A stretch of 64,000 bases of DNA from Cellulosilyticum lentocellum DSM 5427 (GTDB lineage Bacteria > Bacillota > Clostridia > Lachnospirales > Cellulosilyticaceae), in the NCBI RefSeq assembly GCF_000178835.2, contig NC_015275.1, positions 1,447,001 through 1,511,000 on the forward strand, read 5' to 3'. The position numbers and the translations under genes were made by a program. The notes below the pieces were generated by a model, which saw only the letters and a list, made by a program, of their open reading frames with translations, did not search any database and was not told the DNA's origin. Position 1 is the stretch's first letter, and each line of letters opens with the position of its first letter. Of the stretch, positions 33,180 through 59,372 are shown in pieces.

Positions 33180-33345
33180 GAATAGTCCGGTAGATAAGGT
33201 TACCACAGGGATAAGGATTGCTGCCGCGAAATAGTGGAGACACTATTAGTTGGTTAGCAGGCTATGTCGAATCCAAGGCATAATCTAATGCAATTTCAAG
33301 ATGACTCCAGTCATTGCGCCCTGTGAAGCTAAAGTTTGAACGGTA
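33180..33345 (+). ncRNA. M-box (ykoK) magnesium riboswitch
   Basis: Conserved blocks occur in M-box order: GATAAGGTTACC, GCTGCC, GAAATAGTGGAGACAC, TTAGCAGG, TCGAATCCAAGG, TAATGCA, then CTGTGAAGCTAAAG. CACAGGG (33204-33210) pairs with CCCTGTG (33319-33325) to close the core. Mg2+ binding to M-boxes exposes a terminator, which here follows at 33392, and the downstream gene is a Mg2+ transporter. Confidence 0.82.
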
Positions 33346-33391
33346 GTATAGTAGAATTAGACTCTATTATAAAGTGATGATTGATATAGAT

Positions 33392-41511: not shown

Positions 41512-41521
41512 GTAAAAAATG

Positions 41522-41567
41522 AAATCCCTTAAGGTATTATTATATAGTATCTTAAGGGATTTTTATT
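41522..41567 (+). terminator. terminator of the peptide transporter operon
   Basis: AAATCCCTTAAGGTA pairs with TATCTTAAGGGATTT (one G-U-like position), followed by TTATT. It separates this operon from the radical SAM cluster. Confidence 0.85.
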
Positions 41568-41624
41568 AGATGATTTGATATTACCTTTTGTTTAATAAAA
41601 ATTATTAGTGTTATTAAAAATATT

Positions 41625-41670: not shown

Positions 41671-42954
41671 ATGAAGCTATTATTGATTCATGCATGGAAT
41701 AAGGATGAAAGAAGTTATAGGGGAAAGTTATCTAAATTACTTAGTTATCCTTCTTTAACATTATCCACACTGGTTTCGTTAGTACCAACGGATTTGGGGA
41801 GTGAGATTGATGTATGTGATGAAATGTCACAGAAGGTGGATTATGATAAGAAAAAGTATGATGTTGTAGCCATTAGCTTTGAGACATCTTCTAGTATACA
41901 AGCGTATGAACATGCAAAGGCATTTAAGCAGCGTGGTGCGTACATTTTGTTGGGGGGATATCATGTAAGTAATTTGCCAGAAGAAGGCTTAGAACATGGG
42001 GATACAGTCATTATAGGGGCTGGAGAGATATCTTTTCCAGCTTTTTTTTATGATTTTAATAGGGGACAGCCTCAAAAGGTCTATGATCATCAAAAGTTTG
42101 ATGTCTGCCATATAAAGGTACCCGCTAGGCAGCAGGTGAGCCATGCTAAGTATTTAGGAATTCCAGCTATTATTGCAGACAGGGGATGTAATAATAGCTG
42201 CAAGTTTTGTGCCATTAGCAAAATGTGGCGAAGTGATCCAAGGCCTATAGAAGCAGTAGTAGATGAATTAAAGGCTCTTAAAACGAATAAGGTTATTTTT
42301 TTTGATCCTAATTTTTTTAAGCCAAGGGAGTATGCATTAGAGCTGATGAAAGCATTAGAAAAATTAAATATAAGATGGGCATCTAATGCAACGGCAGATG
42401 TGGCTTTTGATGATGAACTATTAGAAGCTGCTAGGAGAAGTAGGTGTACAGGCGTTCTGATTGGGTTTGAATCCCTTAGTGAGCAGTCACTTAAAGGGGT
42501 TAAAAAACGATTTTCTAATACGGAGAAGTATAAAGAGATTGTTGAAAGAATGCATCACTATAACATAGCTGTAAATGGCTGTTTTGTATTAGGCTTTGAT
42601 CATGATACAGAAGAAGAATTGCTTTCTATGCCAGAGCGTATTCGTTATATGCATTTAGATTTGACTAGGTTTGCTATTTTAACGCCTATTCCTGGATCCC
42701 CGCTTTTTAAGGAATTAGAAGAACAAGGGAGAATATTAACAAGGGATTGGTCAAGATACACCCAACATAGAGCTGTTTTTCAGCCTATTCATATGTCTCC
42801 ACAAAGACTAGAGGAGATTTACCGTAAAGTTTGGGCAGAAACCTATCAATATAAAAATATTATAGAACGCGTATGGCATGCACCTAATAAATCATTAATA
42901 GAAAAAACAGTACTATTAGGTAGTAATATTGGGTTTAAATATGTAGGGATATAA
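41671..42954 (+). CDS. B12-binding-domain radical SAM enzyme 1
   Basis: 427 aa. Residues 1-~135 form a Rossmann-like cobalamin-binding-type domain (VVAISFETSSSIQAYEHAK, ILLGGYHVSNLPEE) without the DxHxxG His ligand, as is usual in class B radical SAM methylases. The [4Fe-4S]/SAM site is Cys173-x3-Cys177-x2-Cys180 (RGCNNSCKFC). A C-terminal ~70 residues carry YKNIIERVWHAPNKS. It belongs with enzyme 4 (47942) in one subtype. First gene of the cluster; GGGGGAG site. Reaction unknown: methylation or another radical rearrangement. Confidence 0.9.
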   Translation: MKLLLIHAWNKDERSYRGKLSKLLSYPSLTLSTLVSLVPTDLGSEIDVCDEMSQKVDYDKKKYDVVAISFETSSSIQAYEHAKAFKQRGAYILLGGYHVSNLPEEGLEHGDTVIIGAGEISFPAFFYDFNRGQPQKVYDHQKFDVCHIKVPARQQVSHAKYLGIPAIIADRGCNNSCKFCAISKMWRSDPRPIEAVVDELKALKTNKVIFFDPNFFKPREYALELMKALEKLNIRWASNATADVAFDDELLEAARRSRCTGVLIGFESLSEQSLKGVKKRFSNTEKYKEIVERMHHYNIAVNGCFVLGFDHDTEEELLSMPERIRYMHLDLTRFAILTPIPGSPLFKELEEQGRILTRDWSRYTQHRAVFQPIHMSPQRLEEIYRKVWAETYQYKNIIERVWHAPNKSLIEKTVLLGSNIGFKYVGI

Positions 42955-42966
42955 AGGGGGAGACGT

Positions 42967-44316
42967 ATGAACGTTACAGTCATTAGAGTAAGTATGTTTG
43001 AAGGAAAAAGTTATGATGCCATGAAACCCCTCATTTTTCCCATTATAGCTTCTTTGACACCAGAAACAGTAAAGATAGACTACTTAGATGACCGTATTGA
43101 AACACTTCCAGAATATTTATCATCCGATATGGTTGTTCTATCCTTTGATACTTTTTCTGCCAAGAGGGCTTATCAGCTTGCTAGGCGTTATAAAAGAGAG
43201 GACAATTTGGTGGTATTGGGGGGCTTTCATGCCAGTATGTTGCCGGATGAGGCAGCAGACTATGGAGATGTTGTATTAGTAGGTGATGCAGAAGATACAT
43301 GGCCTCTTTTAATAGAGGATGCCTTAAAAGGAGAGGTAAAGCCACGTTATAGCTCTAAGGGAGATTGTGAGTTAAGCTATATAGATCCTAATCATTCTTC
43401 TTTTAAAGGAAAACGTTATCAAAAAATAGGAGTTGTCCAATTTTCTAGAGGCTGTAAGTTTGGGTGTGACTTTTGTTCCATTAAAGCTATGTACCCTCAT
43501 CAGGTACGTCAAAAAAATATTGAACTGATGGTACGGGAGATTAAGGAGACCAAAGAAAGATTATTTTTCTTTATAGATGATAACCTCTTTTTAAATGAAG
43601 AAACAACACTTCGATTGTTACAAGCACTTAAACAATGTAAGAAAAGGTGGGCATGTCAAATTAGCATAGATATTGCCATGAACGATAAATTATTGAAGCT
43701 CATGAAAGAGAGTGGCTGCTTATTAGTACTCATTGGTTTTGAATCATTAGATGCCGGTAACCTTAAGCATATGAAGAAAGTGGCAAATTTAGCCACCCAG
43801 TATGAAGAGGCTATTAAAAATATTTACAAGCATGGACTCATGATTTATGCCACTTTTGTCCTAGGCTATGATGAGGATACTAATGAAAGCTTTGAAGCAA
43901 CCTTTCGATTTGCTATGAAGCATCATTTTGCTGTGGCTAACTTTAATCCACTTATTCCTATGCCAGGAACAGCACTATATAAGCGATTGGAAGAGGAAAA
44001 TAGACTGATTTACAAGGCATGGTGGACCAATAGTCAGTGTTGCTATGGTGATACGGTATATGAGCCTAAGAAATTAACGCCTTCTGAACTTCGTGAGGGT
44101 TGTAAAAAAATAAGATATCAATTTTATGGCATTAAGAATATCATAAAAAGAATGCTAGGCAATCCTTTACATTTACGTCCATTTCATTTGGGGGTTTATC
44201 TCATATTAAATATCATTTCAGCTATAGAAATTCGTAGAAAACAAGGTAAGCAATTAGGGGGAGGTAGGGATGAAGTTAGTATTAATCAAACCAAACATCG
44301 GGAGAAGAGAACATAG
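42967..44316 (+). CDS. B12-binding-domain radical SAM enzyme 2
   Basis: 449 aa. N-terminal domain with YLDDRIETLP, LSFDTFSAKRAYQLARRY and VLGGFHASMLPDEAADYGDVVLVGDAEDTW; radical SAM cluster Cys163-Cys167-Cys170 (RGCKFGCDFC). Shares the DDR/E-T-x-T-A-x-R-x-Y pattern with enzymes 3 and 5. Its last 47 bases overlap the start of enzyme 3 in another frame. Starts 12 bases after enzyme 1. Confidence 0.9.
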   Translation: MNVTVIRVSMFEGKSYDAMKPLIFPIIASLTPETVKIDYLDDRIETLPEYLSSDMVVLSFDTFSAKRAYQLARRYKREDNLVVLGGFHASMLPDEAADYGDVVLVGDAEDTWPLLIEDALKGEVKPRYSSKGDCELSYIDPNHSSFKGKRYQKIGVVQFSRGCKFGCDFCSIKAMYPHQVRQKNIELMVREIKETKERLFFFIDDNLFLNEETTLRLLQALKQCKKRWACQISIDIAMNDKLLKLMKESGCLLVLIGFESLDAGNLKHMKKVANLATQYEEAIKNIYKHGLMIYATFVLGYDEDTNESFEATFRFAMKHHFAVANFNPLIPMPGTALYKRLEEENRLIYKAWWTNSQCCYGDTVYEPKKLTPSELREGCKKIRYQFYGIKNIIKRMLGNPLHLRPFHLGVYLILNIISAIEIRRKQGKQLGGGRDEVSINQTKHREKRT

Positions 44317-45631
44317 CTTGTATGTGGATGAAGGGCGCATGGAACCGTTGCAGTTAGGGATTTTAGCAGCTCTTACACCGGCAGAGGTTGAAGTAGTCAT
44401 GTATGATGACCGCATGGAGGATATTCCTTATGATGAACCAGCAGATCTAGTAGCCATTACAGTGGAAACCTTTACGGCAAGACGAGCCTATGAAATTAGT
44501 GAGGAATATAGAAAAAGAGGTGTGCCAACGGTTATGGGTGGTATGCATGCCATGCTTTTGCCTGAAGAAGTTATGGCGCATGCTAGTAGTGTCATCATAG
44601 GGGATGCAGAAGATGTATGGGGGCAGATGCTAGAAGACTTTAAAGAAGGACGTCTCCAAAAGGTATATCATGCCATTCAACCTACAATACCACAAAAGGG
44701 TGTGATTACCCGAAGAGATATTTTTGAGGGGAAGGGCTATTTACCCATTACCTTATTACAGTTTTCAAGAGGGTGTAAATATCATTGCAATTTTTGTGCA
44801 TCTAGTAGCTATTTTAAAGGACGTCATTATACAAGGGACGTAGAGGAAGTGATAGAAGAAATTCAAAGCCAAAAAAGGAAGCTCTTATTTTTTGTAGATG
44901 ATAATATTGTATCAGATTTTGAAAAAGCTAAGGCATTATTTCGTGGGTTGATTCCTCTTAAGGTTAAGTGGGTGAGTCAAGGTAGCATAGATATGCTAGA
45001 AGATGAAGAACTCATGTCTCTCATGGTGAAAAGTGGCTGTTTAGGCTTAGTTATTGGTTTTGAATCCATTAATGAAGCTAATCTTGAGTTTGCCAATAAA
45101 GGCGCTAACAGAAAAAAGGCACTTAATCACTATAAAAAGGAAATTAAAGCCCTTAGAAAATGGGGACTCCAAACCTGGGCAGCCTTTACTGTAGGCTATG
45201 ATGGGGATACCAAGGAAAGCATAGAGGAAACTTGCAGATTTGCTATAAAAAACAAATTCTGCTTTGCTGCTTATAATATTTTAATGCCTTATCCTAACAC
45301 ACCGCTTTATGAGAAGCTAAAAAAAGAAGGGCGCCTATTGTATGATGGCAAATGGTGGCTCCATGAAGCCTACCGTTTTAATTATGCAGCATTTATACCT
45401 GAAAATATGACGCCTGATCAGCTCACAGAAGTTTCGTTTTGGTGTAGAAGGACCTTTAATAGTCCTTGGTCTATTTTTACAAGAGCACTTGAAGTGAGAA
45501 CCAATATGCGTACACCTTATCGTTTCTTGACGTATTTGATTTACAATCCACTATTTAGAAAAGAAGTTTTTAAAAAGCAGGGCATGAAATTTGGCTTAAA
45601 GAAGGAGGTAAAGCAACATGGCGAATCTTAA
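44270..45631 (+). CDS. B12-binding-domain radical SAM enzyme 3
   Basis: 453 aa. MEPLQLGILAALTP, YDDRMEDIPYDEPADLVAITVETFTARRAYEI and VMGGMHAMLLPEEV define the cobalamin-domain subtype; Cys169-Cys173-Cys176 (RGCKYHCNFC) is the radical SAM site. GGGGGAGGTAGGG inside enzyme 2 supplies the ribosome site. Overlaps the next gene by 14 bases. Confidence 0.9.
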   Translation: MKLVLIKPNIGRREHSLYVDEGRMEPLQLGILAALTPAEVEVVMYDDRMEDIPYDEPADLVAITVETFTARRAYEISEEYRKRGVPTVMGGMHAMLLPEEVMAHASSVIIGDAEDVWGQMLEDFKEGRLQKVYHAIQPTIPQKGVITRRDIFEGKGYLPITLLQFSRGCKYHCNFCASSSYFKGRHYTRDVEEVIEEIQSQKRKLLFFVDDNIVSDFEKAKALFRGLIPLKVKWVSQGSIDMLEDEELMSLMVKSGCLGLVIGFESINEANLEFANKGANRKKALNHYKKEIKALRKWGLQTWAAFTVGYDGDTKESIEETCRFAIKNKFCFAAYNILMPYPNTPLYEKLKKEGRLLYDGKWWLHEAYRFNYAAFIPENMTPDQLTEVSFWCRRTFNSPWSIFTRALEVRTNMRTPYRFLTYLIYNPLFRKEVFKKQGMKFGLKKEVKQHGES

Positions 45632-46322
45632 AGGGAGTGTAGTAAAACAAGAAGCATTAACAAAGTCAGACAAAGAAGTGATGTATGCGCTGATGGATAC
45701 GTTTTATGACAATATCACAAAAGATAATTTTTTAAAAGATTTAGAAGAGAAAGATTACTGTATTGTCCTAAGAGATGAGACGGGGCATATATGGGGCTTT
45801 TCTACTCAAAAGATTTTACATATTCCTGTAGGAGATACAATGATGCATGGGGTCTTTTCAGGAGATACGATTATTCATAAGGATTATTGGGGCAGTATGG
45901 CTTTATTTATAGAGTTTGCTAAATTCTTTTTTAAATTTGAAGAGGTCTACGGCGAATTTTATTGGTTTTTAATTTGTAAAGGCTACAAAACTTATAAGCT
46001 ATTACCCACCTTTTTTAATACCTTTTATCCTAACTATAAGCTGGTAACGCCAGCGTCTATAAAAGAAAAGATGGATGCCTATGGGATGTACTGTTATCCA
46101 GAGGACTATGACCCTCAGACTGGGGTGATTTGTTATAAACAGCAAAAGGATAGGCTTAAAGAACATGTAGCAGATATCACAGAAGATAAATTAAAGGATG
46201 AGCACATTGCTTACTTTGTAAAGCATAACCCAGAATATATAAAGGGTAATGATATCGTTTGTATCACAAGGCTTTCAAAGGATAATCTTTCAAAAAGAGC
46301 AGTTAGATTTTTATTTCAATAG
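45618..46322 (+). CDS. GNAT-like protein of the radical SAM cluster
   Basis: 234 aa, cytoplasmic, rich in aromatic residues. CIVLRDETGHIWGFSTQKILHIPV followed by SGDTIIHKDYWGSMALFIEF is laid out like an N-acyltransferase core (strand, acceptor loop, helix), but no clear acyl-CoA P-loop RxxGxG/A is visible. Assignment as GNAT-like is tentative. GAAGGAGG site; the stop overlaps the region before the GH3 gene. Confidence 0.6.
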   Translation: MANLKGSVVKQEALTKSDKEVMYALMDTFYDNITKDNFLKDLEEKDYCIVLRDETGHIWGFSTQKILHIPVGDTMMHGVFSGDTIIHKDYWGSMALFIEFAKFFFKFEEVYGEFYWFLICKGYKTYKLLPTFFNTFYPNYKLVTPASIKEKMDAYGMYCYPEDYDPQTGVICYKQQKDRLKEHVADITEDKLKDEHIAYFVKHNPEYIKGNDIVCITRLSKDNLSKRAVRFLFQ

Positions 46323-46336
46323 TGACAGGAGGAACT

Positions 46337-47893
46337 ATGAAGCGTCTTTTTTATTATCTAATCAACACAGCTTGCATCGCTCTTTATAAAAAAAGCTATG
46401 AAACCTTCATGGAGGATTTTTCTTTAGAAAAAATAAAGGACGTACAACAAGAAAAACTGTTAACACTTTTAGAGCAACAGGCAGAGACTGAGTATGGCAA
46501 AAAATATGACTTTAAGGGCATTAAGGGGATAAAGGAATATGGTGAAAAGGTGCCACTTTCTGATTATGAAACCTATAGACCTTATATTGAAAGGTTAGAG
46601 CAAGAGAAGGCGCCACTATTAACGAGTGAAGTGCTTATAGCCTTTGAGCCAACTAGCGGTTCAACGAAAGCTTATAAGTTGATTCCTTATACAAAGACGT
46701 TAAAAGAAGAATTTCAATGGGGGATTAAACCGTGGCTTTATGATTTGTATACAGCTTATCCAGCTATTCGATGGGGAAAAAGCTATTGGTCCATTACACC
46801 GGCTACAAGTAGGCAAAATATAACGCCAAGTGGTATTCCTATTGGATTTGAAGAAGATGGTGATTACTTTGGTAAGCTTGAAAAATATTTAATGGATTGC
46901 ATTTTTGTGTCACCGAAGGCGATTAAGGCAGAGACGGATATGGATAAGTTCTATGAAAAGACAGTATTAGCTCTTTTAAAAGAAAAAAATCTAACACTGA
47001 TTTCTGTTTGGAATCCTACCTATTTGCTTCTACTCCTTGAGTACTTAGATATCCATCAAGAAAGCTTATTATCTAAGGTGCCAAAAAGGCGAAGAAGACA
47101 AATAGAGAAGGCGGTAAGAGACAAACAATATGAAGCGATCTGGCAAAAGCTTGTGATTATAAGCTGCTGGTGTGATGCTAATGCCAAAGTATATGCAGAG
47201 CAAGTTCAAGCTTTATTTCCAAATACCTTTATTCAACCCAAAGGACTCCTTTCTACAGAATGCTTTACTTCCTTTCCTCTAGTTGGAAAAGAAGGCTGTG
47301 TTATGAGCATGTATTCGCATTTCTTTGAATTCTTGCCACTTAATAAAGAAGAGAAGACTGAAAATGAAATAGTGGGTATAGAGGCACTAGAAAAAAATAA
47401 GACCTATGAAGTTGTTGTAACAACAGCAGGTGGCTTTTATAGGTATCGTACCTATGATGTGATTGAAGTATTAGGCTTTAATGAAGCGATGCCACTTGTA
47501 AGATTTATAGGTAAAAATGATAAGGTATGTGATCTGTTTGGAGAAAAGCTACATGAAGACTTTTGTAAGGCGTGTATAGAGAGCTTGCAATTAAATGAGA
47601 CATTTTATCTTTTTGCTCCTCATAAGGATCACTATGTGCTTTATATTCAAAGTAAAGAACTGCCTTCAGTCCAGCAAGTAGAAAAAAGGCTAAGGCAAAA
47701 TTTTCATTATGATTACTGTAGACATTTAGGACAGCTAAAGCCTATTAAGCTATTTATTTTAACCGGTAATCCTAAAAAAGAATATAGTGAAGGGTGTATG
47801 GCAAAGGGACAAAAGTTAGGGGATATTAAGCCCACTTATTTAGCTTTAACAGAGGGATGGGACACTATTTTTACTGGTTATTATAAGGAGTAA
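46337..47893 (+). CDS. GH3-family acyl-adenylate/amide synthetase
   Basis: 518 aa. ATP motif FEPTSGSTKAYKLIPYT (TSGST at 106-110), SYWSITPATS, and VVVTTAGGFYRYRTYDVIEVLGF are hallmarks of the GH3 (auxin-responsive) family in the ANL superfamily. Such enzymes activate a carboxylic acid with ATP and pass it to an amine, forming an amide. The longer frame starts with GTG at 46322 before the AGGAGG site; the ATG at 46337, four bases after it, is chosen. Placement inside a radical SAM operon implies ligation of a modified acid. Confidence 0.87.
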   Translation: MKRLFYYLINTACIALYKKSYETFMEDFSLEKIKDVQQEKLLTLLEQQAETEYGKKYDFKGIKGIKEYGEKVPLSDYETYRPYIERLEQEKAPLLTSEVLIAFEPTSGSTKAYKLIPYTKTLKEEFQWGIKPWLYDLYTAYPAIRWGKSYWSITPATSRQNITPSGIPIGFEEDGDYFGKLEKYLMDCIFVSPKAIKAETDMDKFYEKTVLALLKEKNLTLISVWNPTYLLLLLEYLDIHQESLLSKVPKRRRRQIEKAVRDKQYEAIWQKLVIISCWCDANAKVYAEQVQALFPNTFIQPKGLLSTECFTSFPLVGKEGCVMSMYSHFFEFLPLNKEEKTENEIVGIEALEKNKTYEVVVTTAGGFYRYRTYDVIEVLGFNEAMPLVRFIGKNDKVCDLFGEKLHEDFCKACIESLQLNETFYLFAPHKDHYVLYIQSKELPSVQQVEKRLRQNFHYDYCRHLGQLKPIKLFILTGNPKKEYSEGCMAKGQKLGDIKPTYLALTEGWDTIFTGYYKE

Positions 47894-47941
47894 GAGTAGA
47901 ATTATAAAAAGTCCTTTATAGAAAAATGGGGAGGAAAATAT

Positions 47942-49267
47942 ATGAAAATAGCATTACTTGCACCAGCAGGTGCCATGCACAGGTATAATGGGAATTTTGG
48001 AAAATCTCTTCATTATGCACCATTAACTTTAACAACATTAGCGGCTTTGGTACCAGAAGAATTAAATGCTGAGGTTGTGATTTATGATGAGACAGTAGGC
48101 GTCATTCCACTGGATTTAGAAGCAGATTTAATAGGAATCACCTGTATTACTGGCACAGCTCCTAGGTGTTATGCTTACGGGGATTATTTTAGAAAAAAGG
48201 GAATTAAGGTTTTTATAGGAGGTGTGCATCCGTCTATAATGCCAGAGGAAGCTGCATTGCATGCTGATGTGGTAATGACAGGGTTTTCAGAGTTCACCTT
48301 TCCGCAGATGCTAAAGGATTTTATAAGGGGAGAACTAAAACCTATTTATCATCAAGGGTGTAATTTTAAAATAGAAGGTAGACCTATTCCAAGAAGGGAA
48401 TTACTAAATAAAAAAGGTTATATTACCACCAATACAGTAGAATTGGTCAGAGGTTGTAGTCATCCATGTACTTTCTGTGCCTATCCCACTGCATTTGGAC
48501 GTACGGTGTACAAAAGACCCATTGAAGAAGTAGTGGCAGAGATTGCGGCTTTAAATGCTAAAATCATTGTTTTTCCAGATGTCAATCTCATTATAGACAT
48601 AGAATATGCAAAAAAGCTATTTAAAGCATTGATTCCTTTAAAGATTTATTGGTTGGGACTGGTGACCTCTCATGTGGGAATGGATGATGAGCTATTAAAA
48701 ATATTTGAAAAAAGTGGTTGTAAAGGGTTACTCATTGGGTTTGAATCCATTAGTCAAGAGTCTCAAGCTTATGTGCACAAAGGTGTTAATCAAGTAGCCT
48801 CTTATGCGGAGCTAATGAATAAACTACATGCACATGGGATTCTGGTACAAGGTTGTTTCGCTTTTGGTGGGGACCATGAAGATACCTCTGTTTTTGAAAG
48901 AACCGTTGAGATGGTGACAAAAGTCAAAATTGATTTGCCACGCTACAGTATTTTGACACCTTTTCCAAAGACAGAGTTATATCGCCAACTAGATAAAGCT
49001 GGACGCATTTTTGAACGCAATTGGGCAATGTATGATGTAGAGCATTGTGTATTTACCCCTGCTCAAATGACTGTGGAGGAGTTGGAAGCAGGTATTACAT
49101 GGGCATGGAAAGAAACGTATAAAACCAGTAACATCTTAAAGCGTCTAGCGCCCTTTAGACATACTCCATGGCTTTCTATTCCACTTAATATGGGCTATAA
49201 GGGATATGCCAATAAATATGAGCTTTTTACAAGAGAAGTAATGTGTGATAACTCCAGTATTCAGTAA
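47942..49267 (+). CDS. B12-binding-domain radical SAM enzyme 4
   Basis: 441 aa. HYAPLTLTTLAALVPEELNAEV, YDETVGVIPLDLEADLIGITCITG and FIGGVHPSIMPEEAALHADVVMTGFSEFTFPQM form the N-terminal domain, close to enzyme 1 in pattern. Radical SAM site Cys172-Cys176-Cys179 (RGCSHPCTFC). GGGGAGG site, 48 bases after the GH3 gene. Confidence 0.9.
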   Translation: MKIALLAPAGAMHRYNGNFGKSLHYAPLTLTTLAALVPEELNAEVVIYDETVGVIPLDLEADLIGITCITGTAPRCYAYGDYFRKKGIKVFIGGVHPSIMPEEAALHADVVMTGFSEFTFPQMLKDFIRGELKPIYHQGCNFKIEGRPIPRRELLNKKGYITTNTVELVRGCSHPCTFCAYPTAFGRTVYKRPIEEVVAEIAALNAKIIVFPDVNLIIDIEYAKKLFKALIPLKIYWLGLVTSHVGMDDELLKIFEKSGCKGLLIGFESISQESQAYVHKGVNQVASYAELMNKLHAHGILVQGCFAFGGDHEDTSVFERTVEMVTKVKIDLPRYSILTPFPKTELYRQLDKAGRIFERNWAMYDVEHCVFTPAQMTVEELEAGITWAWKETYKTSNILKRLAPFRHTPWLSIPLNMGYKGYANKYELFTREVMCDNSSIQ

Positions 49268-49324
49268 GGTAACTGGAAAGAGACAAAGTAATGAGGGACA
49301 TACTAACTAGGAAGGGTGAAAAAG

Positions 49325-50656
49325 ATGAAGCTAACCTTTATTTTACCTGCCATTGGGAAAAAGGCAGGACAAAAGTACATAGGAACCTGGAAAATGGAGC
49401 CACTGACTATAGCAGTACTCAAGGGGCTAACGCCAAATGATATTGAAACAGCTTTTTATGATGATAGAATTGAACTCATTGATTATGATGCTCCAACAGA
49501 CTTAGTAGTTATTACGGTGGAGACTTATACAGCAAAAAGGTCTTATGAAATTGCTAAGAAGTATCGCGAAAGAGGTGTGACAGTAGTAATGGGAGGGTAT
49601 CATACAACCCTTGTACCAGAAGAAGTGAAGCAGCATGCTCATAGTATTATGGTAGGTAATGCTGAAAACACCTGGCAAGAGATGCTAGAAGACTTTAGAA
49701 AAGGTCAGCTTAAGACATGTTACAAAGGCGAAACGGTATTTAGCAATACGCTTCCTGATAAATCTATATTTAAAGGGAAAAAATATTTACCAGTTTCATT
49801 AGTTGAAACAGGTAGAGGCTGTTGTAATCGTTGTGATTTTTGTGCTATTGCAGGGTATTATAGCTGTAAGTATTTTGCAAGACCTCACGAGCAGATTGTG
49901 GCAGATATTAAGAAGTCAGAGCATAAGTATCACTTCTTAGTAGATGATAATTTAATGGCGAACAAAGCAAATGCTTTAGGGCTATTTGAAAAAATCACGC
50001 CTTTAGGCATCAAATGGGCAGGACAGGGCACGCTGAGTATGGCAAAGGATGAAAAGCTATTAAAAGCTATGAAGCAAAGTGGATGTGAAATTATTCTCAT
50101 CGGCTTTGAAAGCTTAGAACAAGAAAACCTTAGGCAAATGAATAAGTCTATTAATATTTTGAGTAAAGAAAATGATGAGCTCGTAAAGCGTATTCATGAT
50201 GCAGGTATGGGTATTTACGCTACCTTTGTATTTGGATATGACTATGATACAGAGGCAACCATTGAAAGGGCCTTGAAATTTTCAGAGAAACACAAGTTTT
50301 ATACAGCAGCTTTTAATCATTTATTACCGTTTCCAGGAACGCCTCTATATAAACGTCTAAAAGAAGAAAAGCGTCTGTTACAAGATGAATGGTGGTTAAA
50401 GGAAGATTATAACTATGGGGAGTTAGCTTTTGTGCCTAAAAATATGTCACCAGAAAGATTAAGTCAACTTTGTTGTGATGCACGCAAAGAATTTTCTAAT
50501 TTTAAAAATGTATGGAGACGGGGGATATTTGCCATGAGCCATTCTAATCCTATGTTATGGACGTTATTTTGGGGAATGAATCTTAGAATTGGAGGAGAAG
50601 TGGATCAAAAGATGAATGTGCCTATAGGAGGAAATCTAGATGAGCTTCCAAAGTAA
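49325..50656 (+). CDS. B12-binding-domain radical SAM enzyme 5
   Basis: 443 aa from the ATG. MEPLTIAVLKGLTP, YDDRIELIDYDAPTDLVVITVETYTAKRSYEI and VMGGYHTTLVPEEV align with enzyme 3. Radical SAM site Cys166-Cys170-Cys173 (RGCCNRCDFC). A GTG three codons upstream is possible, but it overlaps the GAAGGG ribosome site. Overlaps the final gene of the cluster by 17 bases. Confidence 0.9.
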   Translation: MKLTFILPAIGKKAGQKYIGTWKMEPLTIAVLKGLTPNDIETAFYDDRIELIDYDAPTDLVVITVETYTAKRSYEIAKKYRERGVTVVMGGYHTTLVPEEVKQHAHSIMVGNAENTWQEMLEDFRKGQLKTCYKGETVFSNTLPDKSIFKGKKYLPVSLVETGRGCCNRCDFCAIAGYYSCKYFARPHEQIVADIKKSEHKYHFLVDDNLMANKANALGLFEKITPLGIKWAGQGTLSMAKDEKLLKAMKQSGCEIILIGFESLEQENLRQMNKSINILSKENDELVKRIHDAGMGIYATFVFGYDYDTEATIERALKFSEKHKFYTAAFNHLLPFPGTPLYKRLKEEKRLLQDEWWLKEDYNYGELAFVPKNMSPERLSQLCCDARKEFSNFKNVWRRGIFAMSHSNPMLWTLFWGMNLRIGGEVDQKMNVPIGGNLDELPK

Positions 50657-51701
50657 ACAATATGTATTTTATAAAGCGACAGATGAGGATCAGCTTGGGA
50701 TTCAAGAGGTTTTTAAGAGTGGCAAGTTTGAAGGGGATATTGCTGTGCAATATTTAAGAGATCCTAACCCTCTAGCCTCCTTTCAAAAGGAAGGAGATAA
50801 ATGTTTCATAGTGGTACTTAAAGAGAAAGAGAAAGATAAAATTATAGGAACAGGAAGCTGTATTATAAGAAGCGTGTATTGGCAAGGAGAAATCAAGCGT
50901 TTAGGTTATTTAGCAGGTCTTAAACTATTGCCAGAGTATCAAAAGAAGATTCTCTTTATTCCTGCTATTTATCGTTATTTATACGAGGAGATAAAAGAGG
51001 AAGTTGACCTATACTTTACCACTATTTTAAGTGAGAATATAGCTGTTCAAAAGATGCTGGAAAAGCCTAGGAAAGTAATGCCACTTTATATTTATGCAGG
51101 AGAATATAAGGTTTACTTTTGTAAGTCAGGTATTAGAAAAAGGAAGTTGAAGGGAGACATCAGACAGTGTAATAAAGATGAATTAGAAGCATTATATGAA
51201 GCTAAAGCTAAAACAGTTAATGGTAGTTTAGTCAAGATTGATGCTTATGATTTAAAAAATGCTACCTTTTATGGCCTATTTGAAAATGGAAAAGCTGTTA
51301 CAGGAGGCTATGTTTTAAATCAGCAGAGTTATAAACAATACGTGGTGAAAAGCTATAGCTTCCTTTATAGCATACTTTCAAAATGTCCAAGCCGCCTACT
51401 AGGCTATCCTTCTTTTCCTAAAATGAATGAAGCAGCTAATTATGCCTGCGCTGCTATTTGGGATCTCGAAGATAATAAAGAAAGAGTAGAGCGATTGTGG
51501 GCTTATATGAGAATGGAAGCTAGAAGCTATGATTTTCTCATGATTGGACTACATGAGAAAGATCCACTTAGGTCATGTATTGAAAAAGGAAAACATATCC
51601 CTTATAGTAGCAGATGCTATTGGGTAGATTGGCAACATAACAGGGTCCCTTATGAAAAAGCTTTAGGAGAAAATTTAGCCGTTGATGTAGCGTTCTTGTA
51701 A
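50640..51701 (+). CDS. GNAT-family N-acetyltransferase-like protein
   Basis: 353 aa. The N-terminal GNAT-type half contains IIGTGSCIIRSVYWQGEIKRLGYLAGLKLLPEYQKK, laid out like the acyl-CoA-binding region; the C-terminal half is a second, GNAT-related or unique domain ending in KHIPYSSRCYWVDWQ. AGGAGG lies within the end of enzyme 5. Last gene of the cluster; may acylate the pathway product. Confidence 0.75.
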   Translation: MSFQSKQYVFYKATDEDQLGIQEVFKSGKFEGDIAVQYLRDPNPLASFQKEGDKCFIVVLKEKEKDKIIGTGSCIIRSVYWQGEIKRLGYLAGLKLLPEYQKKILFIPAIYRYLYEEIKEEVDLYFTTILSENIAVQKMLEKPRKVMPLYIYAGEYKVYFCKSGIRKRKLKGDIRQCNKDELEALYEAKAKTVNGSLVKIDAYDLKNATFYGLFENGKAVTGGYVLNQQSYKQYVVKSYSFLYSILSKCPSRLLGYPSFPKMNEAANYACAAIWDLEDNKERVERLWAYMRMEARSYDFLMIGLHEKDPLRSCIEKGKHIPYSSRCYWVDWQHNRVPYEKALGENLAVDVAFL

Positions 51702-51760
51702 GAAGTTTTGTAACACTTCTATACCATAAGAATGAAAAATGATAAATACTTTTTTTACTA

Positions 51761-51789
51761 TTGTATTTTTATTAGAGACATAGTAGTAT
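51761..51789 (+). promoter_or_regulatory. promoter of the padR operon
   Basis: TTGTAT at 51761-51766, 17-bp spacer, TAGTAT at 51784-51789. Confidence 0.5.
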
Positions 51790-51799
51790 ATACCTAGAT

Positions 51800-51815
51800 T
51801 TACAATGTATTGTAA
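51800..51815. promoter_or_regulatory. PadR operator candidate
   Basis: TTACAAT-GT-ATTGTAA, perfect inverted repeat 11 bases downstream of the predicted -10 and just before the GGAGGT ribosome site. Typical place for PadR autorepression. Confidence 0.6.
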
Positions 51816-51829
51816 TAGGAGGTATAGAG

Positions 51830-52192
51830 ATGGCGATTAGCAAAGAATTACTTAAGGGAACTACTACTTTACTCATTTTACAACTATTAAATGAGAAGGA
51901 CCAATATGGTTATGAGCTCACTAAAGCATTAGAGCAAAGAACTGACAACCTTTTTACACTTAAGGAAGGAACCCTGTATCCTATTTTGCATGCTCTTGAA
52001 AATGAAGGGATGATAGAGGCTTATTGGGAAGATACCCAGTCGGCTAGAAAGCGTAAATATTATCGCATTACAGAAGCAGGAAAAAAGGGACTAAAAGAGA
52101 AGAAAGAAGAGTGGCAGCTTTATTCTGAAGGTGTAAGAAAGGTAATAGGGGGAGGGGTACTTAGTGAACCATTATGTAGATGCTTTTCTTAA
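51830..52192 (+). CDS. PadR-family transcriptional regulator
   Basis: 120 aa. Winged helix-turn-helix with LKGTTTLLILQLLNEKDQYGYELTKALEQRT and LKEGTLYPILHALENEGMI. Autoregulatory repressor type. Overlaps the next gene by 29 bases; PadR proteins are often paired with HAAS-domain proteins, as here. Confidence 0.93.
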   Translation: MAISKELLKGTTTLLILQLLNEKDQYGYELTKALEQRTDNLFTLKEGTLYPILHALENEGMIEAYWEDTQSARKRKYYRITEAGKKGLKEKKEEWQLYSEGVRKVIGGGVLSEPLCRCFS

Positions 52193-53735
52193 AGAAGTAT
52201 TAGAGCAAGTAAGATATAAAAGGATGCATCCTCAATTAGCTCAAGAATTAAATGACCATATTGAATCTTTAAAAGAAACATTAATGGAGGAAGAAGGCTA
52301 TACAGAGGATAAGGCTTATGAAGAGGCGGTAAGGCAAATGGGAGAGAGTGTGGAGATCGGAAAGAGTCTTCACAAAATGCATAAGCCAAGGTTAGAGTGG
52401 CCTACAGTCTTACTTATAGTAGGTCTTTTGGGAATTAGTTTAATCACTATGTTTACTTATGAGTATTATTTTAGTACATATATACAAGGGGCAAGTTACT
52501 TGTACAAGCAGTTCATCTGTATAGTAATAGGTGCTATTGGTTTAATTGGCATGTATTTTATGGATTATAAAAGGATAGAGAAATATTCGTTACTTTTATA
52601 TGTAGCAGCACTGGTTTTACTTATCTTAACTTTCTTATGGGGATATGAATTAAATGGAGCAAAAAAATGGTTAGGAATAGGTGTTTTTCAGTTTGAAACA
52701 GCAGTATTAGTCTCCCCACTCATTATAATAAGTTATATAGGATTAGCAAGAAAATGGAGTAAGAGAGGAAAGTCTGGTGCTATGTTTCTATTCGTGCTGA
52801 TGATGCTTCCTACAATATTTTATGTGAGAGGGAATCTTGCTCAAGGGATAATTGTTTTTATTGTGCTAGTGGGGATTTTCTACAAACATTATCCTAACTG
52901 TTTAAAGCTGATATCGAATAAAAAGCATCATTTCATCTTGTGGATTGCTATACTAGGAGTGGTGGGAACCTTCTTTATTAAAAAGATAATAGAGGCACCT
53001 CACCGGTTGGAGCGTATAAGGGCTTGGCTCAATCCTAGTATTGACCCTATGGGAGAAGGATGGCTTACAATACAGCTTAGAAATATGTGTAAGGGTGCAA
53101 GTCTTGTAGGAAATGATGGTTTATTTTATACATTAGAGCAATTAGGAACAACAGAAGTGGTACCGCCTTATGGAAGTAGTGTTACGGATTATATCCTTAA
53201 CTTTATGATTGGTATTTTGGGAATATTACCAGCTATTATTTTGGTGTGTATGATTATAGGACTTCTTATAAGATGCTTTAAAACAGCAGCAAAGGTGAGA
53301 GAAGGGTATGGGCATGATTTACTAATCAGTATTAGCACCCTATTTAGTGTACAATTTATATTAAGTATACTCTCAAACCTAGGGATTCTTCCTAGTATAA
53401 GTGGCACTTATATGCCATTTGTTTCCTATGGCGGGACTAACTTGGTTTGCAATATGATACTGATAGGCTTTTTCCTAGGCATTTATCGCCGCAAAGATAT
53501 TAATCCAGTCCAGTTGATTAGTGAGGGTACAGCAGAAGCTAAGAGGCAAGGATGGATGCAGTGGGTGAATGCATTTTTTGAAATAGAAGATAAAGAGATA
53601 GATAAAGATTTTAAAGATAATTTTGAAGGGGAATTAAGTAATAGAGCATTAGCTGAAGCAGCCCTTAATTTTTTAAGGGGCTGTGAGGAAGTAGAATCAG
53701 TAGAGGTAGTTTTTAAGGATCAAGTACAAGAGTAG
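52164..53735 (+). CDS. HAAS-FtsW/RodA/SpoVE fusion protein
   Basis: 523 aa. GTG start after GGGGGAGGGG. Residues ~1-75 form a HAAS-type domain (LAQELNDHIESLKETLMEEEGYTEDKAYEEAVRQMG). About ten membrane helices follow, with RIRAWLNPSIDPMGEGWLTIQL and SYGGTNLVCNMILIGFFLGIYRR characteristic of SEDS proteins (FtsW/RodA). The C-terminal ~65 residues are acidic and cytoplasmic. SEDS proteins polymerise peptidoglycan glycan; the usual GEELG after TDYI reads IGILG here, so activity is uncertain. Probably controlled by PadR. Confidence 0.85.
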   Translation: MNHYVDAFLKEVLEQVRYKRMHPQLAQELNDHIESLKETLMEEEGYTEDKAYEEAVRQMGESVEIGKSLHKMHKPRLEWPTVLLIVGLLGISLITMFTYEYYFSTYIQGASYLYKQFICIVIGAIGLIGMYFMDYKRIEKYSLLLYVAALVLLILTFLWGYELNGAKKWLGIGVFQFETAVLVSPLIIISYIGLARKWSKRGKSGAMFLFVLMMLPTIFYVRGNLAQGIIVFIVLVGIFYKHYPNCLKLISNKKHHFILWIAILGVVGTFFIKKIIEAPHRLERIRAWLNPSIDPMGEGWLTIQLRNMCKGASLVGNDGLFYTLEQLGTTEVVPPYGSSVTDYILNFMIGILGILPAIILVCMIIGLLIRCFKTAAKVREGYGHDLLISISTLFSVQFILSILSNLGILPSISGTYMPFVSYGGTNLVCNMILIGFFLGIYRRKDINPVQLISEGTAEAKRQGWMQWVNAFFEIEDKEIDKDFKDNFEGELSNRALAEAALNFLRGCEEVESVEVVFKDQVQE

Positions 53736-53760
53736 AACATTAAAATTGAAATCAACTAAA

Positions 53761-53806
53761 CGACAAAAAGGGAACCATGCATACACGCATGATTCCCTCT
53801 TTGTCT
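53761..53806 (+). terminator. terminator after the padR operon
   Basis: GACAAAAAGGGAA.CATGC pairs with GCATG.TTCCCTCTTTGTC around ATACAC. T-rich descending arm. Confidence 0.75.
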
Positions 53807-53809
53807 CTC

Positions 53810-54210
53810 AGACTCTAGTTTGGCTTTCATTTTTCCTTCAGTAAACCTCATCAAAGGCATAGTAATGGCTCCTCAGCATATAGATGCTATAAGAAGAGGC
53901 ATACTTTAGGCATTATGAAAGCTAAACCAATGAGTGAGGAGCTCTTAAAAGTCTTAGCCGGCGCACCTTTATGAGAGGAAGCTAAGGCCTTAAGACTCTG
54001 GTTTGAAACTTTGTTTGTTGGTATTGCTATAGATGTAAAAACGCACTCGATAACTTATAAGTGGCGCCTCCCTGTCAGCGCACAAGTGAACATTTTCCTT
54101 AAGTCCAGAGGTACCTATAACAATAGATTGAGACTTGGCTGACCCGGTCAGTTCCTCAGGTTGATGCTGCGGTGATTATGCCGTGGGAAGTTATTTAATT
54201 TGTTTTTACA
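53810..54210 (+). ncRNA. candidate structured RNA region
   Basis: No reading frame, but base composition is richer in G+C than other gaps and complementary segments are frequent: TAGTTTGGCTTTCAT (from 53818) with ATGAAAGCTAAACCA (~53917-53931); CTTAGC with GCTAAG (~53953 and 53981); CGCACT with AGTGGCG (~54042 and 54060); CTGACC with GGTCAG (54137-54149 region). AGACTCTRGTTTG occurs twice (53810 and 53993). It does not match RNase P, tmRNA, SRP or 6S signatures that I know. Could equally be a decayed element. Confidence 0.35.
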
Positions 54211-54344
54211 CTTCTATATATGTGGGCTGTAAGTGGAATCCCTAATGAAAAATAAAATATTTTTGAAAATTTAAATAAAAAGGGGAACTCAGTTGTTTTT
54301 TTTACGTCTAAAGAATTAAATAAATATTGAGGGGGAGTCAAGTG

Positions 54345-55331
54345 ATGAAAAAATGGGGAAATCAATTTAAAAAACTCATGTTTGTAGTAGGAATAAGTAG
54401 TATGATATTAGCTAATGGCTGTGGTAGTAGTAAGTCGGCAAGTGAAGCAGCTGCACCTGCTGCGAATGCTTATGCAGCACCACAAGAAGAGGCAGCTTAT
54501 ACGAGCAATGAATCTTCAGTTACTAGCGATGAAAAAGCAGGCCAGGATGCAGCGGGGTATACTGGTGAGAATCCGAAAATTAATACCACCTCAACGTATA
54601 ATCGTAAAGTGATTAAAACAGGAAATATGGAGATTCAAACAGAGCACTTTGGTCAAACGGTTGAAAGCTTAACCAACTGTGTAATCAGCTTAGGGGGTTA
54701 CATAGAAAGTTCGAATATTCAAGGAAGTAGCTTTTACAATAAGGATTCTAATAACCGAACAGCTACTTTAACAGTGAGAGTGCCACAGGCCCAGTTTGAT
54801 GTTTTTGTCAATCGCGGGAGTGAATTTGGAAATGTATCTTACTTATCTTGCAATAATGAAGATGTGACAAGTGCTTATGTAGATACAGAAATCAGATTAA
54901 AGACATTAAAAGCAAGATATGACCGTTTACTAAAACTTCTAGAGAAATCAGGGACGCTTCAGGAACTATTTGAATTAGAACAAGAAGTTAGTAATGTTAC
55001 TTATGAAATAGAAAATCTAAGTGGTACACTTCAGCACTATGATGCTTTAGTAGATATGGGTACGCTTTCTATTCAAGTGCAAGAAGTAAAAGAAATAGTA
55101 GTAGAGGAAGAAGTAGTAGATCCAACCTTTGGTAAGCAAGTAGAAGAAGTGTTTAAAGGCTCTATGAATACCTTAATGGAAATAGGTAAAGGGATCATCA
55201 TTTTAGTTACAGGACTTCTACCTTTTGTTGTCATAATTATCCCTGTTATACTAATTGGTGTTAACCTTTATAAAAGAAATAATAAGAAAAAAAGGACACT
55301 AGAGAAAAACGAAGAAGAAAATGAAGAATAA
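54345..55331 (+). CDS. DUF4349 lipoprotein
   Basis: 328 aa. Lipoprotein signal with ILANGC (Cys26), a low-complexity Ala/Ser linker, the DUF4349 region (YNRKVIKTGNMEIQTEHFGQTVESL, then a coiled coil), and a C-terminal membrane helix (~285-307) with a charged tail. The frame opens at a TTG (54327) but GGGGGAG supports the ATG at 54345. Envelope protein of unknown role. Confidence 0.88.
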   Translation: MKKWGNQFKKLMFVVGISSMILANGCGSSKSASEAAAPAANAYAAPQEEAAYTSNESSVTSDEKAGQDAAGYTGENPKINTTSTYNRKVIKTGNMEIQTEHFGQTVESLTNCVISLGGYIESSNIQGSSFYNKDSNNRTATLTVRVPQAQFDVFVNRGSEFGNVSYLSCNNEDVTSAYVDTEIRLKTLKARYDRLLKLLEKSGTLQELFELEQEVSNVTYEIENLSGTLQHYDALVDMGTLSIQVQEVKEIVVEEEVVDPTFGKQVEEVFKGSMNTLMEIGKGIIILVTGLLPFVVIIIPVILIGVNLYKRNNKKKRTLEKNEEENEE

Positions 55332-55429
55332 AGTGTACTACATTATGTTAATATCCTCAATAAACCGTTGCTTTTCATCATTAAGTATGATAAAATTTGC
55401 CTTATAAAAATAGTATACATTAAAAACAA

Positions 55430-55662
55430 TGATGCGAAGTAGTAGGAAAGTCGTTTTATCAGAGAGCTACTGGGTGGTGTGAAGTAGTAAAATGGATTTT
55501 GTGAACTCGTCGCTAAGTTCCAGGCTGAACTCATAGTAGGTCATGGCGGGTCTTCCCGTTATAGAAGTTTGAGTGTGTAGGGGATTCCCTGCAAATAAGA
55601 GTGGTAACGCGGAAATAGAACCTTTCGTCTCTTGGAATATCTAAGAGTCGGAAGGTTTTTTT
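55430..55662 (+). promoter_or_regulatory. T-box leader of leuS (leucine, CUC specifier)
   Basis: T-box motif TGGTAACGCGG at 55602-55612. Upstream, stem I elements include AGAGAG and GGGTGGTGTGAAG, and the specifier loop GTGAACTC carries CTC (Leu) at 55506-55508. A terminator (AACCTTTCG.CTCTT / AAGAG.CGGAAGGTT, 55619-55655, then T-run) follows. Uncharged tRNA-Leu stabilises the antiterminator and allows leuS transcription. Confidence 0.92.
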
Positions 55663-55765
55663 GATGCTATTTACTAAAGGAAAAACATCACTATATAGCC
55701 ACTATTATAAATAGTAATTGTACATGTTATAGTGATTTAAACACAATACCTAAGGAGGCAAAACA

Positions 55766-58162: not shown

Positions 58163-58169
58163 TAAAATA

Positions 58170-58220
58170 CAAAGTAAAAAGACATGTTACTTAAAAGTAC
58201 ATGTCTTTTTACTTTGTAAA
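58170..58220 (+). terminator. leuS terminator
   Basis: ACAAAGTAAAAAGACATGT pairs perfectly with ACATGTCTTTTTACTTTGT around an 11-base loop; T-rich and likely bidirectional with rbsK. Confidence 0.85.
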
Positions 58221-58244
58221 TAGATATGAGATTATCATAAAATT

Positions 58245-59171: not shown

Positions 59172-59372
59172 AATAAGGCTCCTTTGTGTTAATCTTATTA
59201 TTCATCTTAATACAAGGATTAATAACTGTCAAAGAGCCGAAAAAGATGAAGAATTTTTGGTGAAAATATAAAGTATTTTAATGAATAGCTAGAAAAGTTT
59301 GCTAAGTAAGGTGACTCATGATATGGTAGACATAAGATACATATTATACCTAGTAGAAAGGATAAGATAATA

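What the first reader, a model, noticed from the sequence alone, without database searches (positions are those of the whole stretch)
41671..51701. Uncharacterised biosynthetic operon: five B12-type radical SAM enzymes, a GH3 amide synthetase and two GNAT-like proteins
Eight genes run on one strand with overlaps or gaps of at most 57 bases, bounded by a terminator at 41522 and a new promoter at 51761. Five enzymes have intact CxxxCxxC clusters and a cobalamin-type N-terminal domain. Class B radical SAM enzymes in arrays are known in lipid, hopanoid, tetrapyrrole and antibiotic pathways, usually methylating unactivated carbon. Here they are combined with an acid-activating amide synthetase and acyltransferase-like proteins, with no PKS, NRPS or precursor peptide. 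I infer a pathway that builds or remodels a carboxylate and then forms an amide.
Basis: partly seen in the sequence, partly recalled or inferred. Interest (0 to 1): 0.85.

Follow-up and report, generated by a model that had tools for sequence, protein, structure and literature searches.

The report
Radical-enzyme operon making unknown acyl amide
Eight adjacent genes form an undescribed, widely conserved bacterial assembly line in which radical enzymes probably modify a small fatty-acid-like amide that is put together by a plant-hormone-type amide synthetase and a bacterial look-alike of the human protein-myristoylating enzyme.

Summary
In detail: eight genes on one strand (41671-51701), five intact CxxxCxxC radical SAM enzymes, a GH3 amide synthetase and two proteins of GNAT fold. 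Relatives were found in 82 loci. Where at least 6.5 kb is held on each side of the first GNAT gene, GH3 lies with it in 46 of 47, and radical SAM genes plus both GNATs in 38 of 47. The five radical SAM genes form old orthologous groups (two weakly supported). Seven literature searches for the gene set showed no described pathway (long listings were capped). The product is unknown. Main new point: the last gene is a tandem GNAT with the fold of eukaryotic N-myristoyltransferase (Z 23.7, 298 of 353 residues). Its C-terminus is fixed in 57 of 57 complete members (Leu or Met last, acidic residue at -5), as expected for a catalytic C-terminal carboxylate. Three outside members keep the end point and the acidic residue, with Leu, Ile or Val last. 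Best reading: an N-acylated amide is built by GNAT, GH3 and NMT-type enzymes and tailored by radical SAM enzymes; related loci use Rieske-type oxygenases instead or, in one case, as well. Cobalamin use and methylation remain untested.

The parts
41515..41572 (+). intrinsic terminator in front of the operon
   Evidence: hairpin followed by T run; -23.2 kcal/mol, z -7.0
41671..42954 (+). rA: radical SAM protein with B12-binding-like N-terminal domain (427 aa); optional member
   Evidence: PF04055 68.7 bits, PF02310 31.6 bits (just under cut-off); orthologue in 41 of 82 loci
42967..44316 (+). rB: radical SAM protein with B12-binding-like domain (449 aa); optional, found with rC
   Evidence: PF04055 66 bits, PF02310 35.5 bits; orthologue in 53 of 82 loci
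44270..45631 (+). rC: radical SAM protein with B12-binding-like domain (453 aa); optional
   Evidence: PF04055 60.3 bits, PF02310 32.6 bits; 55 of 82 loci, identity mostly 56-82%
45618..46322 (+). GN1: single GNAT-fold acyltransferase-like protein (234 aa), marker of the module
   Evidence: no Pfam/NCBIfam hit; AlphaFold2 pLDDT 96; GNAT fold Z 12.6; a four-sequence alignment of it fetched the 80 loci
46322..47893 (+). GH3: ATP-dependent acyl acid amido synthetase (523 aa; GTG start, or internal ATG at 46337)
   Evidence: PF03321, PF23571, PF23572 all over cut-off; plant GH3 enzymes are the nearest solved structures; 76 of 82 loci
47942..49267 (+). rD: radical SAM protein with B12-binding-like domain (441 aa); core member of the rSAM version
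   Evidence: PF04055 58.1 bits, PF02310 38.4 bits; 65 of 82 loci
49316..50656 (+). rE: radical SAM protein with B12-binding-like domain (446 aa); core member of the rSAM version
   Evidence: PF04055 49.8 bits, PF02310 27.7 bits (under cut-off); 61 of 82 loci
50640..51701 (+). GN2: tandem-GNAT, N-myristoyltransferase-type N-acyltransferase (353 aa) with invariant C-terminal end
   Evidence: pLDDT 94.6; NMT Z 23.7, 298 residues, last residue aligned with the last residue listed for NMT; C-terminus in one column in 57 of 57; 60 of 82 loci

Best explanation
The operon makes a small N-acylated amide, a lipo-amino compound. GN2 works like an N-myristoyltransferase: its N-terminal GNAT half holds a long-chain acyl thioester, the second half the acceptor, and its own C-terminal carboxylate acts as the base that deprotonates the acceptor amine (inferred from fold and C-terminal conservation; not assayed). 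GH3 activates a carboxylate with ATP and joins it to an amine (family knowledge). GN1 supplies a further acyl transfer (fold shown, reaction inferred). rD and rE, then rB-rC, then rA, are successive radical SAM tailoring steps on this scaffold (order inferred from how often each is present); they probably use cobalamin as well as SAM, but whether they methylate, oxidise or form rings is open. Related loci in other phyla put Rieske, ferritin-like, fatty-acid hydroxylase or desaturase enzymes around the same module, or no tailoring enzymes at all, so the acyl-amide module is the constant part and oxidative tailoring the variable part.
For: Gene set conserved: in 47 loci with at least 6.5 kb on both sides of GN1, GH3 in 46, rD 39, rE 38, GN2 39, rC 33, rB 31, rA 25. 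Five orthologous radical SAM groups, 267 of 267 with CxxxCxxC. GN2: NMT-type fold; 57 of 57 complete C-termini (window included) end in one alignment column while the seven other operon families end in 5-17 different columns; out-of-sample members from Citrobacter, Acinetobacter and Burkholderia also end E-x-x-x-[L/I/V]. C-terminal carboxylate as catalytic base in human NMT1: passages of PMC7048800. GH3: its only NCBIfam hit is OlsH, an N-acyl ornithine synthetase (PMC12493201, abstract and passages). Oxygenase loci: Rieske in 8 of the 12 loci without any radical SAM gene (Pfam confirmation for L108, L112 and L113), and in Burkholderia. Lipid-type neighbours: FA_hydroxylase with OlsE as its only NCBIfam hit (51.7 bits, cut-off 475), FA_desaturase, PAP2 phosphatase beside three loci (L132 by Pfam; L096 and L101 by tblastn at 39% and 30%).
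Against: No substrate or product is known. GH3 scores 43 bits against OlsH's cut-off of 620, so it is not OlsH. By E-value, Foldseek puts two uncharacterised bacterial tandem GNATs (3n7z, 2i00; ranks 1-9) ahead of NMT (from rank 10), and lists Eis as well. No fatty acid, ACP or acyl-CoA ligase gene lies in the operon. The Acinetobacter version sits with a HlyD/MFS/outer-membrane efflux set and an amidase, which fits a secreted metabolite as well as a lipid. Two rSAM-bearing planctomycete loci also hold oxygenase-type matches (L096 three Rieske and a desaturase, L102 a desaturase; tblastn only), so the swap 'radical SAM or oxygenase' is not clean. L104 (20.7 kb held) and the shorter L100 lack rE and GN2. 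In L038 the GN2 frame is interrupted near residue 300; the usual end is found in another frame, and the row was not counted. Four zero-rSAM loci show no Rieske; three of them are held only over 4-10 kb (L099, L110, L111).
Confidence: 0.55

Rival explanations
1. It makes a membrane aminolipid of the ornithine-lipid kind: GH3 acts as OlsH does, joining a free fatty acid to an amino acid, and the acyltransferases add the second chain.
For: OlsH is the only NCBIfam family hit by GH3 and is shown to make N-acyl ornithine (PMC12493201, abstract and passages). In Bacteriovoracaceae the module sits with a FA_hydroxylase whose only NCBIfam hit is ornithine lipid hydroxylase OlsE, and with a hexapeptide acyltransferase-like protein. 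No exporter in the window operon.
Against: Score far below the OlsH cut-off (43 versus 620). Patchy distribution (4 of 391 Clostridia genomes) and presence on a Citrobacter plasmid fit a specialised product better than a bulk membrane lipid. An OlsI relative was not searched for by sequence; none is named among the Pfam hits of the operon.
Confidence: 0.2
2. It makes a small non-lipid metabolite (antibiotic, signal or metal ligand); GN1 and GN2 transfer short acyl groups as Eis, mycothiol synthase or HisAT do.
For: Foldseek's lowest E-values for GN2 are bacterial tandem GNATs that are not NMT. HisAT, a tandem GNAT, is most active with short acyl chains, though myristoyl still works (PMC12219266). 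The Acinetobacter locus has a tripartite efflux set. Foldseek's first rows for GN1 are aminoglycoside acetyltransferases.
Against: A C-terminus that ends at the active site is the mark that PMC12219266 uses for NMT-type against HisAT-type; the C-terminal conservation here points that way. All 50 rows that VIA-align lists are NMT, over the whole length.
Confidence: 0.2
3. One reading: the five enzymes are serial cobalamin-dependent C-methylases that build a branched carboxylate.
For: B12-binding-like N-terminal domain in all five, three over cut-off. rC's best NCBIfam hit is the PhpK P-methyltransferase family (95.4 bits, cut-off 600). The host genome and 4 of 6 other operon genomes tested have a CobS match, so probably make cobalamin. 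Methylations are called the most common reaction of the class in the abstract of PMC11659888 (search listing).
Against: Best family hits of the other four are non-methylases (BchE, HpnJ), and the nearest solved structure to rD is 6fd2, AprD4 by recall. Two operon genomes have no CobS match. No cobalamin riboswitch at gathering score in the window or in eight sister loci.
Confidence: 0.25

Closest known systems
OlsH/OlsI ornithine lipid pathway of planctomycetes (PMC12493201)
   Same: bacterial GH3-type amide synthetase joining a carboxylate to an amine; lipid context
   Different: 43 bits against cut-off 620 for OlsH; here with radical SAM and NMT-type enzymes
[quoted passage not shown]
   Same: tandem GNAT fold over the whole length, C-terminal residue aligned with the last NMT residue listed, C-terminus invariant in position
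   Different: 9-14% identity, no Pfam hit at all for GN2; sits in a biosynthetic operon. Bacterial NMT-type structures were noted by a structure search in PMC12219266 but given no function in section 10 and the passages I read
BchE / HpnJ / PhpK / AprD4 class radical SAM enzymes
   Same: radical SAM core, with a B12-binding-like N-terminal domain; BchE has an oxygen-dependent counterpart (recalled), as these loci seem to
   Different: BchE and HpnJ 69-96 bits against cut-offs of 481 and 578, PhpK at most 95 against 600; five separate orthologous groups
Lipid biosynthesis radical SAM family TIGR04072 (rSAM_ladder_B12)
   Same: lipid-associated B12-binding/radical SAM proteins; 54-65 bits for all five
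   Different: cut-off 360 not reached; no fatty acid synthesis genes in the operon

Membership tests
N-myristoyltransferase (functional type) | tandem GNAT fold like NMT over the whole length | tested here: met
   Z 23.7, rmsd 3.3, 298 of 353 residues to 4cax; all 50 rows listed are NMT structures
N-myristoyltransferase (functional type) | protein C-terminus placed at the active site as catalytic base | tested here: inconclusive
   last residue aligned with the last NMT residue listed and invariant in position, 57 of 57; model coordinates were not open to distance measurement
N-myristoyltransferase (sequence family) | match to the Pfam NMT families | tested here: not met
   no Pfam hit for GN2 at E 0.01
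N-myristoyltransferase | transfers myristoyl to N-terminal glycine of proteins | not testable with these tools
   needs an assay
GH3 acyl acid amido synthetases | GH3 N, central and C-terminal domains over cut-off | tested here: met
   152, 73.3 and 26.4 bits against 23.6 each
OlsH lyso-ornithine lipid synthetase | equivalog score of at least 620 bits | tested here: not met
   43.4 bits
Radical SAM superfamily | PF04055 and CxxxCxxC | tested here: met
   all five over cut-off; motif in 267 of 267 orthologues
Cobalamin-dependent radical SAM enzymes | N-terminal B12-binding domain | tested here: inconclusive
   PF02310 over cut-off in 3 of 5; partial coverage in four of the five
Cobalamin-dependent radical SAM enzymes | bound cobalamin | not testable with these tools
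   needs purified protein
BchE, HpnJ, HpnR, PhpK, AprD4, TIGR04072 | equivalog or subfamily cut-off score | tested here: not met
   all scores far below cut-off for all five proteins

The most novel reading that the evidence does not exclude
A previously undescribed, horizontally moving class of bacterial lipo-amide, made by a constant GNAT-GH3-NMT module and tailored interchangeably by oxygen-independent radical SAM enzymes or oxygen-dependent Rieske/diiron/desaturase enzymes. In it, bacterial NMT-type enzymes have their first assigned role, as small-molecule N-acyltransferases that use their own C-terminus as base.
Probability: 0.4. Interest if true: 0.85.

Novelty: new variant of a known kind. 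Interest (0 to 1): 0.7.

Why it matters
A gene set of this size and conservation with no described product is a concrete target: it would yield a new compound class from gut and sediment anaerobes, new chemistry for five radical SAM groups, and a bacterial counterpart of N-myristoyltransferase, an enzyme long reported as eukaryotic only (so stated in PMC12219266). The parallel radical SAM and oxygenase versions would be another case, next to BchE and its aerobic counterpart (recalled), of one pathway with anaerobic and aerobic solutions.

Tried and rejected
Lead from Paraburkholderia NifA nodules (PMC8305402, passages): the GH3 genes there are plant genes; unrelated. Cobalamin riboswitch as a sign of B12 use: none at gathering score in the window or in eight loci. 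Viral contigs: 99 candidate stretches, none confirmed as a relative of GN1. PHROGs: no hit for GN1, GN2 or GH3. Second GH3 group of Lachnospirales (L006-L031; 24-45% identity over short aligned stretches, best E 1.9e-23 against 5e-44 or better for the operon type): taken as a different family; no other operon gene found in their short loci. Insertion site in congeners: not resolved, because the flanking C26 peptidase gene has no match there and the FtsW-like gene has close matches in one congener only (two copies at 43-44%). Solved-structure profile search for GN1: no usable hit. LasI-type autoinducer synthase for GN1: Z 11.6, within 1 of the top rows (GCN5, NatD), so not informative. Citrobacter operon DNA in 20,395 E. 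coli records: no megablast match. Script fault: one search counted only 9 rB because sequences running past a stop were dropped; corrected. Rows dropped before counts: L054 (taken as the same contig as L033 by length and content); short pieces of L083 rE and L056 rC; GN2 of L086 (contig end) and L038 (interrupted frame); two further GN2 rows cut by contig ends (L048, L078). L119 and L121 have the contig lengths of L036 and L104 and were not counted as new. The GN1 tree used 45 of the 83 rows on hand, the GN1 model 51 and the GN2 model 38 sequences.
Full report
What is there. The window lies in a 4,714,237-base single-contig genome, whose size fits Cellulosilyticum lentocellum DSM 5427 (recalled, not tested). 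Eight genes run on the + strand from 41671 to 51701, here called rA, rB, rC, GN1, GH3, rD, rE, GN2. They overlap or are 12-48 bases apart. A strong terminator precedes them. The right boundary is open: a PadR gene starts 128 bases downstream, and the scan lists neither a terminator nor a + strand promoter-like site in between, though that scan also misses the left terminator. Domain content: five radical SAM proteins with a B12-binding-like N-terminal domain (three of five over the Pfam cut-off), a full GH3 protein, and two proteins without any Pfam or NCBIfam hit. The five radical SAM proteins are 28-40% identical to each other. At E 0.001 the only match to rD in the genome outside the operon is weak (E 3.5e-4).

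Conservation. One scan of a collection of 84,980 species genomes with a four-sequence GN1 alignment gave 195 relatives among 270 candidate stretches; the best 80 were kept. With three loci from whole-genome searches and one duplicate removed, 82 loci hold GN1. Of the 47 with at least 6.5 kb on both sides of GN1, 24 hold all eight families, 6 lack only rA, 5 hold GN1, GH3, rD, rE and GN2 only, and 4 hold other subsets with radical SAM genes. In 8 of the 47 there is no radical SAM gene: six have GN1 and GH3, one has GN1, GH3 and GN2 (L101), one has only GN1 (L112). By record title, radical SAM-bearing members come from Lachnospiraceae, Oscillospiraceae, Alkaliphilus, Peptoclostridium, Limnochordia, UBP9, Saganbacteria and Planctomycetota; 13 of the 80 titles name ruminant gut samples. 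Gene order is mostly fixed, but L034, L040, L097 and the planctomycetes rearrange it. A tree of 272 radical SAM proteins puts rA-rE into five groups with four misplaced rows in all (L046, L095, L097, L102). Local support is 0.90 for rA, 0.82 for rB and 1.00 for rC, but only 0.63 for rD and 0.69 for rE (FastTree). All 267 non-window members have CxxxCxxC. I infer that the duplications are older than the spread.

Distribution. GN1 is in 4 of 391 Clostridia genomes, own genome included, and in 1 of 7 of the genus. The operon-type GH3 is in 4 of 392 genomes of the order (own included; E 5e-44 or better); 28 further genomes have only a weaker match (E 1.9e-23 or worse). The GN1 tree places the window with Alkaliphilus serpentinus and a Clostridiaceae MAG (support 100/99), which suggests transfer, since its own genus and family show no other copy in these samples. 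Those two loci show no rA within the 10 kb held on each side. Direct evidence of mobility: a 159-kb mobilizable IncFIB/IncFII plasmid of Citrobacter portucalensis carries GN1-GH3-rD-rE-GN2-rB-rC, then a PAP2 phosphatase and an rA-like gene on the other strand. Megablast found no second copy among 72,556 plasmid records and none in 20,395 E. coli records.

GN2 is NMT-like. An AlphaFold2 model from 38 sequences (pLDDT 94.6) is a tandem GNAT. VIA-align lists N-myristoyltransferases in all 50 rows, Z 22.2-23.7, 292-301 residues, with model residue 353 at the end of every aligned range (Aspergillus 492, human 496, yeast 455, Plasmodium 410). Human Gln496 is the C-terminal residue and its carboxylate the catalytic base (PMC7048800, passages); that the other numbers are also last residues is recalled. 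If GN2 works in the same way, its C-terminus must be fixed: all 57 complete members, window included, end in the same alignment column, 56 with Leu and 1 with Met, and residue -5 is Glu (52) or Asp (5). The seven other operon families end in 5-17 different columns. rE comes closest, with 55 of 60 ending in one column. Three members that were not in the alignment, found later, end E-V-G-R-I (Acinetobacter), E-I-Y-L-V (Burkholderia) and E-I-A-L-L (Citrobacter). One locus, L038, has an interrupted GN2 frame and was not counted. Foldseek by E-value puts other bacterial tandem GNATs ahead of NMT, so chain length is inferred, not shown. PMC12219266 (section 10 and passages) reports that NMT-type structures occur in bacteria and archaea; in what I read it gives no function for the bacterial ones.

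GN1 and GH3. GN1 is a confident single GNAT (pLDDT 96; Z 12.6) without a clear nearest functional relative. GH3's only curated-model hit is OlsH (43 bits, cut-off 620), and the solved structures it matches are plant GH3 enzymes. OlsH joins fatty acids to ornithine with ATP (PMC12493201, abstract and passages).

Variable tailoring. Twelve of the 82 loci have no radical SAM gene; 8 of these carry Rieske proteins (L105-L109, L112-L114; Pfam for L108, L112 and L113). The Bacteriovoracaceae set of L108 also has a FA_hydroxylase, an SDR and a 2Fe-2S protein over cut-off, and, below the curated cut-offs, two ferritin-like/AurF-like proteins and a hexapeptide acyltransferase-like protein. The 8 GN1 proteins fall in one clade (100/99) together with L110 and L111, where no such genes were seen on short contigs. 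Burkholderia arboris has GN1-GN2 beside a Metal_hydrol protein, a fatty acid desaturase, GH3 and Rieske. A 3.97-Mb Acinetobacter record has amidase, HlyD, MFS, GN1, GH3, outer-membrane efflux protein and GN2, and no match to the radical SAM or oxygenase queries in the 24.7 kb read. Against a clean swap: of the 70 loci with radical SAM genes, two planctomycete loci also show oxygenase-type matches (L096: three Rieske at 23-26% and one desaturase; L102: one desaturase; tblastn E 1e-6). In that search no Clostridia locus does. PAP2-type phosphatases lie beside L132, L096 and L101.

Reading. The constant part is GN1 plus GH3, usually with GN2: two acyl transfers and one ATP-driven amide bond. The variable part is oxidative or radical tailoring. 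I therefore think that the operon makes an N-acylated amide whose scaffold is modified by rD and rE, then by rB-rC and rA where present. Shown: gene set, conservation, folds, C-terminal invariance, a plasmid copy. Inferred: NMT-like mechanism, long acyl chain, amide product, order of steps. Unknown: substrates, product, cobalamin use, methylation. For methylation speaks rC's best family hit, PhpK; the best hits of the other four are BchE or HpnJ. CobS is found in 5 of 7 operon genomes tested, own included, so cobalamin is probably available to most, but this does not show its use here.

Known or not. Seven literature searches over 5.39 million open papers were aimed at this gene set; none of the papers listed describes it. 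Three of the seven returned more papers than were listed (57, 20 listed; 255, 10 listed; 25, 10 listed), and subscription journals are mostly not in that library. Three further searches were on NMT and on the cobalamin domain. The curated cut-offs of the NCBIfam hits listed for the radical SAM and GH3 proteins are all missed by a wide margin. I call it a new variant of a known kind (an operon of known superfamilies in an undescribed combination), with a fair chance that the product class is new.

Noticed in passing
L132 (NZ_CP134684.1, Citrobacter portucalensis plasmid, record 51417-60075): The same radical SAM/GH3/NMT-type operon sits on a mobilizable plasmid of an enterobacterium, followed by a PAP2 phosphatase.
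   Followed up: partly
L130 (NZ_CP064203.1, 1499872-1524561): Acinetobacter baumannii record of chromosome size (listed as a plasmid) with amidase, HlyD/MFS efflux, GN1, GH3, outer-membrane efflux protein and NMT-type GN2: a short version of the module beside an efflux set.
   Followed up: partly
L131 (NZ_CP101525.1, 1776535-1801230): Burkholderia arboris has GN1-GN2 beside a Metal_hydrol protein (weak AurF match), a fatty acid desaturase, GH3 and a Rieske oxygenase.
   Followed up: partly
L096, 1048-13971: Gemmataceae locus that combines three Rieske-like genes, two radical SAM genes, the GN2-GN1-GH3 module, a PAP2-like and a desaturase-like gene (tblastn).
   Followed up: partly
L046, first gene with an rD match: Clostridia MAG with an extra radical SAM gene in front of GN1 that the tree leaves outside the rD group.
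   Followed up: no
window 51830-53735: PadR regulator overlapping a gene with a long N-terminal extension (HAAS-like by eye) fused to an FtsW/RodA domain; one congener genome has two neighbouring copies at 43-44% identity.
   Followed up: no
window 55420-55635: T-box leader (128.5 bits) in front of an ORF at 55766 that reads as a leucyl-tRNA synthetase by eye.
   Followed up: no
window 33179-33355 and 26489-26621: M-box magnesium riboswitch and PyrR binding site.
   Followed up: no
L006-L031: A second, weaker-matching bacterial GH3 group (open frames mostly 535-623 aa) in 28 of 392 genomes of the order, without other operon genes in the short loci held for it.
   Followed up: no
rE family C-terminus: rE also has an unusually fixed end (55 of 60 in one column, last residue Lys in 54); meaning unknown.
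   Followed up: no
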